From a virus: a DNA stretch of 64,000 bases. The notes beneath the pieces are model-generated. The model made no database searches. It was given only the letters and a program-made list of their open reading frames with translations, and had not been told where the DNA came from. Positions 8,567-20,539 of this stretch are shown here, piece after piece. Each line of letters starts with the position of its first letter. Position 1 is the stretch's first letter. Both the position numbers and the translations under genes were made by a program. The stretch covers positions 113,879-177,878 of IMG/VR virus record IMGVR_UViG_3300047510_001668. One strand, written 5' to 3'.

Positions 8567-9055
8567 TTACTTCAGAAATTCACCCAGGATTTCATGAGAG
8601 ATGGCACCCAACACCACACTACCGCCCATGATGAGCCATTTCCATCGTTCCAGGTCCACCACTCTCTTTTCCAGTTCAGTCTGTTGTTCTGACATGGCTT
8701 TGGTTTCTTCTGTGATGCATTTCTTGATTTCAGAAGTGCCATAGGTCATGGCAGTCATCAATCGTTGTTCTGTTTCTGTCAGGTCATCGGACATCTCACG
8801 ACTGACCGTGGTGATACGGGAATGCAACTCTTTGATATCACCTTGGATTTCCTGCCGGCGTCTTTCCACCAATGAGAACAACTCCTCGTCTATGTCATCC
8901 TGTTTGGACAACCGTTCTTCATGAACAGCCAACATCTTGGCAATGTTGTTGGACACATCACCCATTTTTTCAATGGCAGCATCCAAGCGTGAAAAGAGCG
9001 ATGCCATTCTGTTGACATCACTCTTTAACACTGCCACTTCTGTTTCCAGATTCAT
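8567..9055 (-). CDS. Coiled-coil protein with C-terminal membrane anchor
   Basis: The 162-residue protein is almost entirely helical and charged, with heptad-like patterns over residues 1-135, and ends with one hydrophobic segment (WLIMGGSVVLGAISHEILGEF, about 140-160). A tail-anchored inner-membrane protein is likely. It is separated by 3 nt from the small membrane protein upstream. No catalytic motif is seen. Resembles unnamed tail-anchored coiled-coil proteins of T4-like environmental phages. The function is unknown. Confidence 0.75.
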   Translation of the reverse strand: MNLETEVAVLKSDVNRMASLFSRLDAAIEKMGDVSNNIAKMLAVHEERLSKQDDIDEELFSLVERRRQEIQGDIKELHSRITTVSREMSDDLTETEQRLMTAMTYGTSEIKKCITEETKAMSEQQTELEKRVVDLERWKWLIMGGSVVLGAISHEILGEFLK

Positions 9056-14941: not shown

Positions 14942-16339
14942 TTATCGTGTTTCACGCCATTGAGCAGAGGCGTATACGTTGGTATCAGCAGTGCTGCTAA
15001 GATTTCTTGCAATTAAGGCGAATATATTACTATCAGTAGATCCAATGTTCTGACTGAGATAGGCACGTTTGGCTTTTACTGGGTCAGCCAAATCCATGCC
15101 TCCTGATGCTTGTTTACCTGATGGGTTGTTGGCTGCCACAAACCCAGACGTAAACAATTCACCGCCTGTGGTGCTGAATGCTGTGCCTACTGTGGTGTTG
15201 TATTCAACAACTGAATCATTATTGGCACTGACCCATGTACCGCCTGTGATATTGGCGCTGGCACTAGGTAGACGCCATAGTTCAAAAACTATGGATGAGC
15301 CATCAGATAGTATATTCAAGTCGGTCAAACGAACAACACTTCTGTTGGGTAGTGATTGATAGGTGTTTTTCAACTTGATGGCAACTATACACTTGGCTGT
15401 GGCAGGTGCTCCTTTACTCAGTAATATATTTTCAGCATAACTACTGAAGTTCACACCTGATTCCACATATCCACCTTCAGACATCACCGTGGAACAGATT
15501 TGATCCATGTAGGTGCTGCCTACTGCCACACCTGTGTTTCTGATTTCACAACGAATGGGGATATTGGGATTTCTCCAGTACACCGTGGCGAGATTGTTAC
15601 TGTGTTCAAATTCATGAGCCACAATGAATTCACCATCATGTACAAATCCTATGCGAAGGCGACCCACACCCAACCATTGATAATCACAAAAGACCAACTG
15701 TGTCTTGGTGACATCAATATTGAATTCTGATGCTCCGGTACCATCACATTTGTCAACATTCCATGCAGATTGTGGGATGGGTGTTTCATCAACCACACTA
15801 CCACTGATGCTGGTGCGCTTCACAAATTGAAGTGTGCCATTACCTGCTTGTTGGAAATACACGCCATCTTCTTCACCAAATAGTCCCACACGCTTCACTG
15901 TGTTGGTGCGAGCTACACCGAACACAAAACTCATCAATGCCAATTGGCTCTTGCCTGGCATATAATGATGATGCATTCTGCTTTGATGAACAACATAATC
16001 GCCATTGCCTGTGCCTACTGATAAGCGAACTGAGGCTTCATTGGCACGAAGTGTTTTAGTTCCTGACCCACTGGACGAAGTTAACAGTTCAACTTCTTCA
16101 CCATAGATATGACTGTAATCAGCAAGTGTAAAGGGTTCAGAAACACGAAGGCGACCGAACGCATCCAGGTTCGTGCCGCCGAGACTGACTAATAAAGAAT
16201 TGTTACTGCCATAACCGCCTGTGACAGGAAGAGGATTGGTAGCCTCAACAACGCTACCATCCTTGCCTGCTGCAAGCATCACAACTTCATACCGTTGTTC
16301 TCCATCTTGTACATCTTGTGGCTTGATGTATTGTGCCAT
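14942..16339 (-). CDS. Virion structural protein
   Basis: The 465-residue protein starts MAQYIKPQDVQDGEQRYEVVMLAAGKDGSVVE and contains LDAFGRLRVSEPFTLADYSHIYG near residues 59-81, a signature I associate with structural proteins of environmental T4-like phages. The remainder is beta-rich with SxxTGTxTLRANEASVRL and many aromatic positions, consistent with a baseplate or fibre-associated protein. Its ATG overlaps the stop of the adjacent two-enzyme fusion protein (shared base at 16339). Precise virion location is unknown. Confidence 0.75.
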   Translation of the reverse strand: MAQYIKPQDVQDGEQRYEVVMLAAGKDGSVVEATNPLPVTGGYGSNNSLLVSLGGTNLDAFGRLRVSEPFTLADYSHIYGEEVELLTSSSGSGTKTLRANEASVRLSVGTGNGDYVVHQSRMHHHYMPGKSQLALMSFVFGVARTNTVKRVGLFGEEDGVYFQQAGNGTLQFVKRTSISGSVVDETPIPQSAWNVDKCDGTGASEFNIDVTKTQLVFCDYQWLGVGRLRIGFVHDGEFIVAHEFEHSNNLATVYWRNPNIPIRCEIRNTGVAVGSTYMDQICSTVMSEGGYVESGVNFSSYAENILLSKGAPATAKCIVAIKLKNTYQSLPNRSVVRLTDLNILSDGSSIVFELWRLPSASANITGGTWVSANNDSVVEYNTTVGTAFSTTGGELFTSGFVAANNPSGKQASGGMDLADPVKAKRAYLSQNIGSTDSNIFALIARNLSSTADTNVYASAQWRETR

Positions 16340-18120
16340 TATTCCATTCCTTGTATTACTGCATTGAAAAGCGCTCGTGCGTCTACATCACGCATGGTGC
16401 TAGGTAATCCTTTTTTGAAATTCCTGTAATCATTTTTCATGGCAAAATCACGCATTTTGCTTGCTGACATGCCAGCGGCACCATCAGCATCAGGATCACG
16501 CTCACCTGCAGAAACCACTTCAACTGCTTTAAACGTATACAATGTTCCATTATATTTATGTACTGCTTGTTCATATTCAGGTACACGGTCACTACCTGCC
16601 ACCATGATAACCTTGTCATACATGCCATTCCATCCTTCCATCCATTTCAAAAAACTGAATTTCTCTTTGGTGGCCAACACAATGCTCACGTTGGGAAACA
16701 TCTTGTTGGCAAACATCAGCTTCATGTCTGGGTCCAAAGGATCTTTGGGAGCCTTCTGTGTGCGAGACAGAATGATGAGATAGTCTGCCTTTTTGTTCTT
16801 GGCCACACTTACCACTTTGTCAATCAGTTTTTTATGCCCGATGGTGGGAGGATTCATACGACCAAAAGCAAATACTATAGTTTTCAGTTCCTCATCCAAC
16901 TGGGTGGGTCCTACTGGTGTCCTGCTCCAATCTTTCACAGCATTGAAGTTGGCTTGTGAGAACTCCATTCTGTTCACCAACTTCACTGCATTTCCTGCTC
17001 GGTCTACTGCCACATAGCCTTCAGGGTCCGTGTGCTTGAATCCTTCAGGTGTTTCAATGAATGTAGGGATGCCTTGTGCCTCATTCAACTTCTTCACAAA
17101 GATGTTTTTTGCATCCAACAACGTCACATACAACTTGAACATGGCACGAAGATTCATGGCGTTGGTACGAAGATACTTCTGTAATTCTTTTTTCAACCCT
17201 TGATACTTCTTTTGACCAGCCGCGGTTTTCATCCCTGCTTCCTTCTTGGCAACACGGTCTATCACAAAGGCTTCCAACCCAGCAAGGGAGCGCTCGTTGA
17301 TGGGAGCGCCATCCCGCACCAGTTTGTTCACAAAAATCTTGAACATGTATCCCACGGTCAAATCAGATGTTTGTGTTGCCAACTCATCTAGAAACTTTCT
17401 CGCAGAAATGGCGTTGGTTTTGGCAGAAGCTACAAGTGAACTAACCGTTCTGGTTTCCTGGTCAGTCAACGTCATCTTTCCAGACATGTCCTGATAGGAC
17501 GCATCCTGGATCCAGGCTGTTTTAGATTTTAGCTTACTGACATCAACACCAAAAGAAGCCGACATTTCATTCACCGCCTTCTTTCCTGTATATTTAGTAT
17601 GGAACACAATTCCAAGATGGGAATGCTGTAGCTTTTCTCCCAAAGGATCCGTGACAGGCACGGCATACATGATGGTATTGGGCTTGAAAGTGATGTATTT
17701 CACCCCTTCAATCGTGGTAGTTTTCTTGATGGCAGGGGTGAACATCACATCTCCCTGCAACACATCTTTGAATGGCAAATCGCGCAATTCACGAAACACC
17801 ACTTTCAACACTTCAGCTGGACCACCACCATAATAGTAGTCTATCATCTCCTCAGAGAATCCCAGCTTCATGTCTTTGGCAAAGGCACCATGTTTCGTGG
17901 CCACGAAGAACATCCCGGTTTCCGGGTCTTTGCCACACACCACAGCAGGGGCACCATCCCACTTCACGGTGATGTTCAGCTTTCTGTTCACATTGCCTTG
18001 GAACAAGTCAAAAAGCGCCTCAACAAACGCTATGGATTGTTGGGCGCCTTTATAACCTAGATTGATGATGTCATCTTCTAGATGTTCCAGATGTGTGTTT
18101 TTGTCGCTTTTAGCGGCCAT
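16339..18120 (-). CDS. Fusion of ligase-like domain (DUF6267-type) and NMNAT-like cytidylyltransferase
   Basis: The 593-residue protein has two enzyme-like parts. Residues 45-75 contain TVKWDGAPAVVCGKD, with Lys53-Trp-Asp-Gly, the KxDG motif of ATP/NAD-dependent nucleic-acid ligases and capping enzymes. FVATKHGAFAKD and LQGDVMFTP follow. I associate this region with DUF6267. Residues 415-560 contain a nucleotidylyltransferase core: FGRMNPPTIGHKKL (GxxxPxxxGH, residues 420-429), VAGSDRVPEYE, and a late SASKMRDFA matching the family's ISSTxxR-type motif. This fold includes NMN adenylyltransferases and cytidylyltransferases. A late box (CATAAATA) lies 25 nt upstream, so the protein is made with virion components and may be packaged. 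The combined activity is unknown. Confidence 0.8.
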   Translation of the reverse strand: MAAKSDKNTHLEHLEDDIINLGYKGAQQSIAFVEALFDLFQGNVNRKLNITVKWDGAPAVVCGKDPETGMFFVATKHGAFAKDMKLGFSEEMIDYYYGGGPAEVLKVVFRELRDLPFKDVLQGDVMFTPAIKKTTTIEGVKYITFKPNTIMYAVPVTDPLGEKLQHSHLGIVFHTKYTGKKAVNEMSASFGVDVSKLKSKTAWIQDASYQDMSGKMTLTDQETRTVSSLVASAKTNAISARKFLDELATQTSDLTVGYMFKIFVNKLVRDGAPINERSLAGLEAFVIDRVAKKEAGMKTAAGQKKYQGLKKELQKYLRTNAMNLRAMFKLYVTLLDAKNIFVKKLNEAQGIPTFIETPEGFKHTDPEGYVAVDRAGNAVKLVNRMEFSQANFNAVKDWSRTPVGPTQLDEELKTIVFAFGRMNPPTIGHKKLIDKVVSVAKNKKADYLIILSRTQKAPKDPLDPDMKLMFANKMFPNVSIVLATKEKFSFLKWMEGWNGMYDKVIMVAGSDRVPEYEQAVHKYNGTLYTFKAVEVVSAGERDPDADGAAGMSASKMRDFAMKNDYRNFKKGLPSTMRDVDARALFNAVIQGME

Positions 18121-18153: not shown

Positions 18154-18471
18154 TCAAACGGATGAAATGAAATCCTCAATGCTCTTTTTCTTACGAAGCA
18201 TGGTTTGATAGATGTATCCTTGTACCAGACCTTCAATCAAATCCTCCAGCTCCTGATGCTGTTGTTCCTCCAGTTCTTCTTGATAGAAGTCCAGATTTCC
18301 AGCCATGTCTAGGAAACGTTTCTCACATTCTGCGATACCAGCATCAATGGAAGCTTCCAATTCATCAGCATCTGTCTGGTGTTCCCATTCTTCCCAATTG
18401 ATTTCATAATTCTCTGACCGAAGCTCACCCAGCTTCCTGAGTAGTTCCAATGTGGTCTGATGGTTAGACAT
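18154..18471 (-). CDS. Acidic helical protein of unknown function
   Basis: A 105-residue acidic protein with many Glu/Gln/Leu residues (FYQEELEEQQHQELEDLIEGLVQG) and a basic segment near the C-terminus (LRKKKSIEDF). It starts MSNHQTTLELLRKLGEL and overlaps the upstream small membrane-protein gene by 8 nt. No recognised domain is seen. It belongs to a run of small genes downstream of sigma70-like promoters at 19493 and 19763, so early expression is likely. Confidence 0.65.
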   Translation of the reverse strand: MSNHQTTLELLRKLGELRSENYEINWEEWEHQTDADELEASIDAGIAECEKRFLDMAGNLDFYQEELEEQQHQELEDLIEGLVQGYIYQTMLRKKKSIEDFISSV

Positions 18472-18787
18472 GAGTGTTCCTTACCGTGGACTTCCAGCGA
18501 AGTTGACGCTCAAACTCACCCTTCTTTATCTTCCACATCTGCTTCACATGCTTCTTCTTGGACATCTTCACCATCTTGTCCAGGTTCTGAAGCACCTTTT
18601 CATCAGCATGAATCATTTCCACGGCCTCCGCATTAGGGATGATGGCATCAGGATGAACGTACTGAACAACCATTTCATGAGGCTCAGCCTCATCAAACAG
18701 AATCTTACTAACTTTACCAAAAAACCAAACAGGAGAGACAATCATAGCCAAGAACATTACCATGATTAGATAATGATACCAGAACAT
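18464..18787 (-). CDS. Small membrane protein with RBS-sequestering hairpin
   Basis: The 107-residue protein has one N-terminal membrane segment (residues 5-27) and a basic cytoplasm-like tail (MSKKKHVKQMWKIKKGEFERQLRWK). No domain is recognised. The notable point is its mRNA: the segment from 18 nt before the start through the first two bases of the ATG is perfectly complementary over 20 bp to codons 15-21 (MIVSPVW). The hairpin would bury the AGGAG site and the start codon, so translation is probably controlled by unfolding, upstream ribosomes, protein or temperature. Confidence 0.7.
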   Translation of the reverse strand: MFWYHYLIMVMFLAMIVSPVWFFGKVSKILFDEAEPHEMVVQYVHPDAIIPNAEAVEMIHADEKVLQNLDKMVKMSKKKHVKQMWKIKKGEFERQLRWKSTVRNTHV

Positions 18788-18805
18788 GATTGTCTCTCCT
18801 GTTTG
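18726..18805 (-). repeat. Perfect 20-bp inverted repeat covering a ribosome-binding site
   Basis: Arms 18726-18745 and 18786-18805 are perfect reverse complements separated by 40 nt. In the mRNA, the 5' arm holds the AGGAGAG ribosome-binding site and the first two bases of the start codon of the gene at 18464-18787. The 3' arm is inside its coding region. Confidence 0.85.
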
Positions 18806-18810
18806 ATTGA

Positions 18811-19053
18811 TTAGTTACCGCCGAAGATACGGCTACCAGCAGTCTGGTAGGCAGCAGCCACGATGGAGCGTGAAGGACGACCCATGCGATAGGTCGTGGT
18901 CTCACCACGATTGGTGTACACGCAGAAACCCTCAGAACGAAGGTCGTTCACGCGGGCGCGGAGGTTACGGATGCCGAAGCGGCTCCGAGCCTGAGCGGCG
19001 CTGATGGTACGACCAGTTGAGAGGTAACGAACAAGACGGTCATTCTGTGACAT
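18811..19053 (-). CDS. Small helix-turn-helix protein
   Basis: An 80-residue protein starting MSQNDRLVRYLSTGRTISAAQARSRFG. The order helix - GRTISAAQARSRFGI - RNLRARVNDLRSEGF is a winged helix-turn-helix: the second helix AAQARSRFG is followed by a recognition helix RARVNDLRSEG and a short wing (VYTNRGETTTYRMG). The start at 19053 follows a strong AAGGAG. It is likely a DNA-binding regulator expressed early. An 11-bp hairpin lies upstream at 19087-19119. The C-terminus RSIVAAAYQTAGSRIFGGN is unassigned. Target unknown; the repeated promoter motifs in this window are candidates. Confidence 0.75.
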   Translation of the reverse strand: MSQNDRLVRYLSTGRTISAAQARSRFGIRNLRARVNDLRSEGFCVYTNRGETTTYRMGRPSRSIVAAAYQTAGSRIFGGN

Positions 19054-19086
19054 AGTAAATCTCCTTATATCGCCCTTTTCAATGAC

Positions 19087-19119
19087 GGAGCGCACGGCGG
19101 GCGGAAAACCGTGCGCTCC
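19087..19119 (-). repeat. Strong intergenic hairpin (11-bp perfect stem)
   Basis: Arms GGAGCGCACGG and CCGTGCGCTCC (19087-19097 and 19109-19119) with an 11-nt loop. It lies between the gene at 19130 and the helix-turn-helix gene. No T-tract follows on the minus strand, so it is not a typical intrinsic terminator. It may be an operator, an mRNA-processing or a stabilising structure. Confidence 0.8.
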
Positions 19120-19129
19120 CAATGTTATG

Positions 19130-19447
19130 TTACTTGGTCTTCTTTACAGTCTTGACAGCCTTTGAAGCAGGGCGGAGACGGCGAGCCGCTGCGGCAATGG
19201 CATCCTGATAGACCTGCTCCGAAATCGAGGCATCATTAGAGCCACGAAGATAGTCCAGAGCCTGATTCTTGGTCATGGCATTCGGCAGGTCAACCCAAAC
19301 CACAGAGTTGACACCGAGCTTGCCCAGAGCCTTGGTGTAGCGGGTCCGGTCGTTAGTGAACCGAATCTTGGTGCCAATGGTCTTGCCATTGCCACGCGTC
19401 CCGCCGTTAGTGAAACAAACGAAAGAAACCTTGTCAGAATTACGCAT
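19130..19447 (-). CDS. Small basic early protein, unrecognised
   Basis: A 105-residue protein starting MRNSDKVSFVCFTNGGTRGNGKTIG. The start at 19447 is chosen for its GGAGG site. Composition is basic, with a glycine-rich loop near residues 14-24 that could suggest phosphate binding but does not form a clear Walker A. The C-terminus is lysine-rich (ASKAVKTVKKTK). It is served by a promoter at 19493-19521 carrying a threefold TGTAGGTG repeat. Function unknown; nucleic-acid binding is plausible. Confidence 0.65.
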   Translation of the reverse strand: MRNSDKVSFVCFTNGGTRGNGKTIGTKIRFTNDRTRYTKALGKLGVNSVVWVDLPNAMTKNQALDYLRGSNDASISEQVYQDAIAAAARRLRPASKAVKTVKKTK

Positions 19448-19479: not shown

Positions 19480-19530
19480 CACCTACATCTTAATTCTAAC
19501 ACACCTACAACCAATTGTCAAGCACCTACA
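19480..19530 (-). repeat. Three in-phase copies of TGTAGGTG across a promoter
   Basis: TGTAGGTG occurs at 19523-19530, 19502-19509 and 19480-19487 on the minus strand, spaced 21 and 22 nt, about two helical turns. The copies lie before the -35 box, in the spacer, and after the -10 box. This arrangement suggests an operator array. Confidence 0.75.
19493..19521 (-). promoter_or_regulatory. Sigma70-like early promoter
   Basis: Minus strand TTGACA, 17 nt, TAGAAT, about 45 nt before the gene starting at 19447. The spacer and -10 overlap the 15-nt motif TTGTAGGTGTGTTAG, related to the motif around hsp20. Confidence 0.8.
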
Positions 19531-20531: not shown

Positions 20532-20539
20532 TATTTATA
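20532..20539 (-). promoter_or_regulatory. T4-type late promoter box (TATAAATA)
   Basis: Perfect TATAAATA on the minus strand, directly after the gp41 stop codon and 24 nt before the HExxH gene. Confidence 0.75.

What the first reader, a model, noticed from the sequence alone, without database searches (positions are those of the whole stretch)
18726..18805. Perfect 20-bp hairpin that buries the ribosome-binding site and start codon of a membrane-protein gene
The leader and the first two bases of the ATG (18786-18805) are exactly complementary to codons 15-21 of the same gene (18726-18745). The hairpin would block initiation when formed, so it could be a thermosensor, a co-transcriptional timer, a protein-bound switch or a coupling device requiring ribosomes from the upstream gene. 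A perfect match of this length that also encodes part of the protein is unlikely by chance.
Basis: seen in the sequence. Interest (0 to 1): 0.8.

Follow-up and report, generated by a model that had tools for sequence, protein, structure and literature searches.

The report
Phage gene start locked in hairpin
In a group of uncultured T4-like phages, the start signal of a small membrane-protein gene is folded into a very long RNA hairpin with the gene's own coding sequence; evolution has kept the pairing while changing the letters, so the gene is probably made only when ribosomes arrive from the gene just before it or catch the RNA before it folds.

Summary
18726-18745 and 18786-18805 are exact reverse complements; counting G-U, the stem is 24 bp (18785-18808 with 18723-18746). 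It encloses the Shine-Dalgarno and AUG of a 107-aa gene, "X". It is the strongest start-site structure among 80 gene starts in the window (33.4 kcal/mol to open, against a mean of 6.7, sd 4.7).

It is not chance and not a one-off. X always follows an HTH_39-domain gene in related uncultured phage contigs. In all 18 relatives with a long stem scored, X's start is buried (20-44 kcal/mol to open); the starts of both neighbouring genes are not. Leader and coding arm co-vary (9 of 24 pairs change on both sides), odd pairs are G-U rather than A-C on the sense strand, and synonymous shuffling weakens the fold. The hairpin survives when X loses its membrane segment. It is therefore an RNA-level element.

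Best mechanism (inferred, about 0.5): independent initiation on X is silenced, so X is made by ribosomes delivered from the HTH_39 gene, helped by nascent RNA before the second arm is made. A thermosensor and T4 lysozyme-style late-promoter escape are disfavoured; an RNase III site is not excluded. Kind known; this gene family and arrangement not found described.

The parts
18464..18787 (-). gene X, 107 aa: N-terminal hydrophobic (membrane) helix and a conserved C-terminal helical domain (KKKHVKQMWKIKKGEFERQLRW)
   Evidence: ORF; relatives at 33-100% identity; no Pfam match and only a marginal PHROG match; AlphaFold model of the relative L053 all-helical, C-terminal helices pLDDT about 95, no PDB match at E<=0.001
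18785..18808 (-). 5' arm of the hairpin: leader with Shine-Dalgarno AGGAG and the AUG start codon
   Evidence: pairs conserved with covariation
18723..18746 (-). 3' arm of the hairpin, inside gene X (last base of codon 14 to codon 22, encoding MIVSPVW); CUCUCC opposite the SD is supplied by the Ser-Pro codons
   Evidence: silent-site constraint
18747..18784 (-). loop between the 24-bp arms (codons 2-14), itself able to form a small hairpin
   Evidence: fold
18786..18805 (-). 20-nt perfect Watson-Crick core, 5' side
18726..18745 (-). 20-nt perfect Watson-Crick core, 3' side
18811..19053 (-). upstream gene, 80 aa, HTH_39 winged-helix domain; its UAA stop (18811-18813) lies 2 nt before the stem and 23 nt before X's AUG
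   Evidence: Pfam PF14090 E=1.4e-10; PHROG 4973; always directly upstream of X
18154..18471 (-). downstream gene, 105 aa; its ATG overlaps the end of X (ATGTCTAA)
19493..19521 (-). sigma70-type early promoter TTGACA-17-TAGAAT (11/12, extended -10) upstream of the HTH_39/X operon
   Evidence: same type of site at a similar position in most relatives

Best explanation
A conserved cis-acting RNA gate. In the X mRNA the SD and start codon (5' arm) pair with codons about 15-22 of X (3' arm), so free 30S subunits cannot start X on folded mRNA. X is therefore translated mainly by ribosomes delivered from the HTH_39 gene just upstream. Its stop codon lies close to X's start (first base to first base 4-29 nt in stem-bearing loci) and next to the base of the stem, so a terminating ribosome opens the lower stem and can re-initiate, most easily on nascent RNA whose 3' arm is not yet made. 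Once a ribosome is in the first 20 codons of X it holds the 3' arm open for the next. The result is low, coupled output of X from a strong early operon. Shown here: the hairpin, its conservation and covariation, its RNA (sense-strand) nature, its specificity to X's start, the synteny and the promoter-like sites. Inferred: silencing of initiation, coupling to HTH_39, and the help from nascent RNA.
For: Covariation in 11 class-A sequences: 88% of cells paired, 9 of 24 pairs changed on both sides (shuffled mean 3.7; 1/500 reach it), score 0.345 against 0.173 shuffled (0/500) and at most 0.123 in slid registers. Own arms pair better than swapped arms (0/20000 permutations); non-Watson-Crick pairs 26 G-U against 4 A-C on the sense strand. 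Sense strand folds better than antisense in 16 of 18 loci. Synonymous recoding weakens the fold in all 18 long-stem loci (z -1.4 to -5.7), not clearly in L024. X start costs 20-44 kcal/mol to open in all 19 loci scored (window and 18 relatives), against 5-11 for the HTH start and 2-15 for the next gene. The stem persists when X has lost its membrane helix (L060/L061) and in the distant L089. HTH_39 precedes X in every locus examined; the one relative without a long stem has the stop-start overlap TAATG (L024). A ribosome parked at the HTH stop lowers the opening cost by 5-18 kcal/mol (to 0 in L024); one on early X codons lowers it from 36 to 13 in the window. Established analogues: hairpin-silenced downstream genes in coupled pairs, e.g. 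phage f1 VII/IX and MS2 coat/lysis (PMC12548453).
Against: A ribosome terminating at the HTH stop does not by itself free the start: 11-30 kcal/mol remain in all stem-bearing loci, and in class A its leading edge stops just before the SD. Coupling and silencing are not measured. Short stop-to-start spacing is common in phage operons and is weak evidence alone. Start codons in the divergent class (L047, L052, L053, L057-L061) are uncertain: an upstream AUG lies at the base of the stem rather than deep inside it.
Confidence: 0.52

Rival explanations
1. One-shot co-transcriptional timer without dependence on HTH_39: ribosomes load on X only in the short interval before RNA polymerase has made the 3' arm; once folded, the mRNA is locked for good.
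For: The 3' arm is transcribed about 40-60 nt after the SD/AUG; the folded mRNA is too stable to open by itself; a ribosome already on early X codons keeps the site far more accessible.
Against: Does not explain why X always sits directly behind the same HTH_39 gene or why the stemless relative overlaps stop and start.
Confidence: 0.18
2. RNase III (double-strand RNase) processing site: the long stem is cut, separating HTH_39 mRNA from X and destroying the X start, which sets X low and the HTH mRNA end.
For: About two helical turns of near-perfect dsRNA in class A; pairing rather than sequence conserved.
Against: The stem is placed on the start site rather than elsewhere between the genes; divergent stems are bulged or have shorter perfect runs (10-15 bp); no cleavage data.
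Confidence: 0.15
3. Protein-bound switch: the HTH_39 protein, X or another phage factor binds the stem to open or lock it.
For: HTH_39 gene always adjacent.
Against: Arm sequences change completely between families, leaving no shared binding sequence.
Confidence: 0.06
4. RNA thermometer.
For: The SD/AUG-sequestering geometry resembles a thermometer.
Against: Near-perfect 24-bp stem; predicted SD+AUG unpaired probability 0.003 at 20 C, 0.008 at 37 C, 0.03 at 55 C.
Confidence: 0.02
5. DNA-level inverted repeat (protein-binding site or cruciform) or a by-product of inverted duplication, unrelated to translation.
For: The pair is a near-perfect inverted repeat in the window.
Against: G-U rather than A-C mismatches on the sense strand, stepwise compensatory changes in relatives, synonymous-site constraint, sense fold stronger than antisense.
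Confidence: 0.03

Closest known systems
MS2 (RNA phage) coat/lysis gene pair: lysis start in a hairpin, opened by coat-gene termination (PMC12548453)
   Same: Phage; small membrane protein; start silenced by a hairpin; upstream gene close by and proposed activator
   Different: DNA phage; no overlap in most relatives (start 4-29 nt after the first base of the stop); much longer near-perfect stem whose second arm is in the downstream coding sequence; no lysis function known; coupling not tested
Phage f1 genes VII/IX and E. coli rpmI-rplT translational coupling by RNA unfolding (PMC12548453)
   Same: Downstream gene silenced by structure; upstream translation proposed to open it
   Different: Different genes; f1 VII/IX overlap by 4 nt; here one arm is codons 15-22 of the silenced gene
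T4 genes e, soc, 49, I-TevI and related hairpin-sequestered RBSs (PMC3014915, PMC2988022)
   Same: T4-type phages; SD/AUG in a stem that limits translation from early transcripts
   Different: For e and I-TevI the partner strand lies upstream and is left out of transcripts from a late promoter in or next to the hairpin; here the partner is in the coding sequence and no late promoter (ATAAATA) lies near
Engineered translation-coupling hairpin cassettes (PMC5842541; Mendez-Perez 2012 cited there)
   Same: Hairpin joining upstream stop and downstream SD/start so that the downstream gene needs upstream translation
   Different: 11-bp designed stem; the natural class-A stems are longer and use coding sequence as the masking arm

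Membership tests
Start-site-sequestering RNA hairpin | SD and/or start codon in a stable stem | tested here: met
Start-site-sequestering RNA hairpin | Pairing maintained by covariation in relatives | tested here: met
Start-site-sequestering RNA hairpin | Reduces translation in cells | not testable with these tools
   needs a reporter; inferred from 33 kcal/mol opening cost
Translationally coupled gene pair | Short stop-to-start spacing with conserved gene order | tested here: met
   start lies +2 to +29 from the first base of the stop; HTH_39 always upstream
Translationally coupled gene pair | Upstream ribosome opens the downstream start | tested here: inconclusive
   terminating ribosome lowers the cost by 5-18 kcal/mol but 11-30 remain in stem-bearing loci
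Translationally coupled gene pair | Downstream output depends on upstream translation | not testable with these tools
   no expression data
T4 gene e / I-TevI type late-promoter-escape hairpin | Partner strand upstream of the RBS and excluded from late transcripts by a late promoter in or beside the hairpin | tested here: not met
   partner is codons 14-22 of X; nearest late-promoter-like ATAAATA upstream of X is about 1.7 kb away; none within 900 nt upstream of HTH_39 in 19 loci
RNA thermometer | Start region opens in the physiological temperature range | tested here: not met
   (energy model only)
RNase III processing site | Cleaved by RNase III | not testable with these tools
   stem length is compatible
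Rfam RNA family | Match above a gathering score | tested here: not met
   best hit mir-5879, 37 bits against gathering 97, on both strands: a generic hairpin match

The most novel reading that the evidence does not exclude
A family-wide ribosome-history gate: coding sequence is selected as the masking strand, so that a membrane-protein gene can be started only by ribosomes already on the message (from HTH_39 or the preceding X ribosome) or before the message is completed. Folded, idle mRNA is irreversibly silent, giving few copies of X from a strong early operon.
Probability: 0.3. Interest if true: 0.7.

Novelty: new variant of a known kind. Interest (0 to 1): 0.6.

Why it matters
It is a natural, evolutionarily maintained example of an extreme start-site lock in DNA phages in which the gene's own codons are the lock. 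Energetically the start should be dead on folded mRNA, so any expression of X must come from non-equilibrium events (upstream ribosomes, nascent RNA, or nuclease/helicase action). That makes the long-debated unfolding-versus-reinitiation question for coupled genes directly testable with a set of natural variants. It also suggests that codon choice in the membrane segment of X is partly dictated by RNA pairing.

Tried and rejected
Thermometer: rejected by temperature folding. T4 gene e-type late-promoter escape: rejected by geometry and absence of a late promoter. Intrinsic terminator: the stem is followed by U6 in the window, but the scan finds none (its loop limit of 8 nt would miss this long-loop hairpin) and the U run is not kept in relatives (for example L060, L053). 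DNA-level repeat, duplication or assembly artefact: rejected. Known RNA family: none. Gene identity: no Pfam match, only a marginal PHROG match (tail fiber, E=0.008), no tblastn match in 50,697 phage records with three different members, no relative in the genome-contig collection, no significant PDB fold match; function stays unknown. HTH_39 relatives in Pelagibacter and Methylophilales phages are followed by other genes, not X. T4-type gene-60 bypassing was considered and dropped because X has its own SD and AUG.

Full report
WHAT WAS CLAIMED AND WHETHER IT IS THERE. On the minus strand, 18805-18786 (CAAACAGGAGAGACAATCAT) is exactly complementary to 18745-18726 (codons 15-21 of the gene starting at 18787). 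Adding G-U pairs gives an uninterrupted 24-bp helix, 18808-18785 with 18746-18723, which contains the Shine-Dalgarno AGGAG and the full AUG. The region folds at -52.6 kcal/mol, z = -10.6. In a survey of 80 gene starts in the window, opening this SD/AUG costs 33.4 kcal/mol, mean 6.7, sd 4.7, next highest 18.5.

SETTING. The window is part of a 177,878-base virus record with a T4-like/cyanophage-like replication set; its helicase is up to 63% identical to cyanophage helicases. Gene X (107 aa) lies behind an 80-aa HTH_39 gene (PF14090) and overlaps the start of a 105-aa gene. A strong sigma70-type promoter-like site lies at 19521-19493 (11 of 12 positions), with such sites at similar positions in most relatives. 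No late-promoter-like ATAAATA was found within 900 nt upstream of HTH_39 or between HTH_39 and X in any of 19 loci; in the window the nearest one upstream of X is at 20532. X therefore appears to lie on early transcripts that always include both arms.

RELATIVES. Searches with X and with HTH_39 found relatives in uncultured viral contigs; no X was found in 50,697 phage records or in the genome-contig collection. In every locus that carries X and was examined, HTH_39 is directly upstream. In class A (window, L002, L003, L004, L006, L009, L010, L046, L049, L050, L089) the SD and AUG are inside or at the tip of the stem, and the 3' arm is always the stretch encoding the end of the membrane helix (..V-S-P-x-W); the Ser-Pro codons supply the CUCC/CCCC that faces the SD. 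In class B (L052, L053, L057, L058, L059) and L047 the likely start is 9-16 nt after the first base of the HTH stop and at the base of the stem; the arms are entirely different in sequence, but the 3' arm encodes the same protein region. In L060/L061 X has lost its membrane segment altogether, yet a stem (AGGAGGCCATGGGC/GCCCATGGCCTCCT) sits at its start. L024, the most divergent, lacks a long stem but has the stop-start overlap TAATG.

IS IT SELECTED AS RNA? Yes, on several tests. (1) Hand-anchored arms of 11 class-A sequences (with an artificial loop so that the aligner kept the register; two sequences carry a one-base deletion in the 5' arm, one of which the aligner placed away from its bulge, which should lower the counts): 88.2% of cells paired; 9 pairs changed on both sides against 3.7 in shuffles (1/500); covariation score 0.345 against 0.173 (0/500); slid registers at most 0.123. 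The shuffles do not control for relatedness; the slid registers do. (2) Own arms match better than swapped arms, 0 of 20,000 permutations. (3) 26 G-U against 4 A-C mismatches on the sense strand; sense folds more stably than antisense in 16 of 18 loci. (4) Synonymous recoding of codons 2-36 makes the fold weaker on average in all 18 long-stem loci, z -1.4 to -5.7. (5) In 19 loci X's start costs 20.4-43.7 kcal/mol to open, the HTH start 5.3-10.6, the next gene's start 2.2-15.4. Several loci are near-identical; about 16 are distinct.

HOW IT PROBABLY WORKS. With more than 20 kcal/mol to open, equilibrium initiation on folded mRNA should be negligible (inference from the known dependence of initiation on start-site stability). 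Some non-equilibrium route must exist. A ribosome at the HTH stop lowers the cost by 5-18 kcal/mol but leaves 11-30 in stem-bearing loci; a ribosome on early codons of X lowers it from 36 to 13 in the window and similarly in most class-A loci, though not in class B. I therefore favour delivery of ribosomes from HTH_39 (re-initiation or unfolding), most effective on nascent RNA before the 3' arm exists, with self-sustained opening by successive ribosomes in class A. The conserved HTH_39-X order and the TAATG overlap in L024 point the same way, but short spacing is common in phages and this is not proof. RNase III cleavage of the stem and a pure co-transcriptional timer remain open.

COMPARISON WITH KNOWN SYSTEMS. 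Hairpin-silenced, translationally coupled genes are known (f1 VII/IX, MS2 coat/lysis, rpmI-rplT; PMC12548453). T4-type phages use RBS-sequestering hairpins (e, soc, 49, I-TevI; PMC3014915, PMC2988022), but in the documented cases (e, I-TevI) with the partner strand upstream and removed by a late promoter; that defining feature was tested and is not met. Engineered coupling cassettes look similar (PMC5842541). The new aspects are the gene family, the length and near-perfection of the stem, the use of the silenced gene's own codons as the masking strand, and its maintenance through compensatory change across families of uncultured phages. Six literature searches of a partial (open-licence) library found no description of this element; that is not proof of absence.

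LIMITS. No experiment shows silencing or coupling. Energies are model values at 37 C; hosts are unknown. Start codons in class B, L047 and L060/L061 are inferred. The survey of other starts covers the window only. The function of X is unknown: one membrane helix and a confident C-terminal helical pair, no fold match.

Noticed in passing
window 8567-9055 (-): Second strongest start-site structure in the window: a 14-bp helix at the chosen start (18.5 kcal/mol to open).
   Followed up: no
window 19050-19145 (-): An 11-bp GC-rich hairpin (GAGCGCACGG/CCGUGCGCUC) lies between the 115-aa gene and HTH_39, without a U run; the fold of the stretch is only mildly unusual (z -1.9).
   Followed up: partly
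window 18814-18880 (-): The 3' end of HTH_39 is nearly invariant at the DNA level among class-A relatives (22-mer GTAGCCGTATCTTCGGCGGTAA exact in 12 contigs), possibly an RNA-level constraint.
   Followed up: partly
window 1-64000: The late-promoter-like core ATAAATA occurs 16 times, all on the minus strand (expected 4.9 over both strands), consistent with genuine T4-type late promoters.
   Followed up: no
L060, L061: Gene X without its membrane segment but with the C-terminal domain kept, suggesting that the C-terminal domain carries the function.
   Followed up: partly
window 16339-18120 (-): Fusion-like protein: DUF6267 domain (N-terminal) with a cytidylyltransferase-like C-terminal domain.
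   Followed up: no
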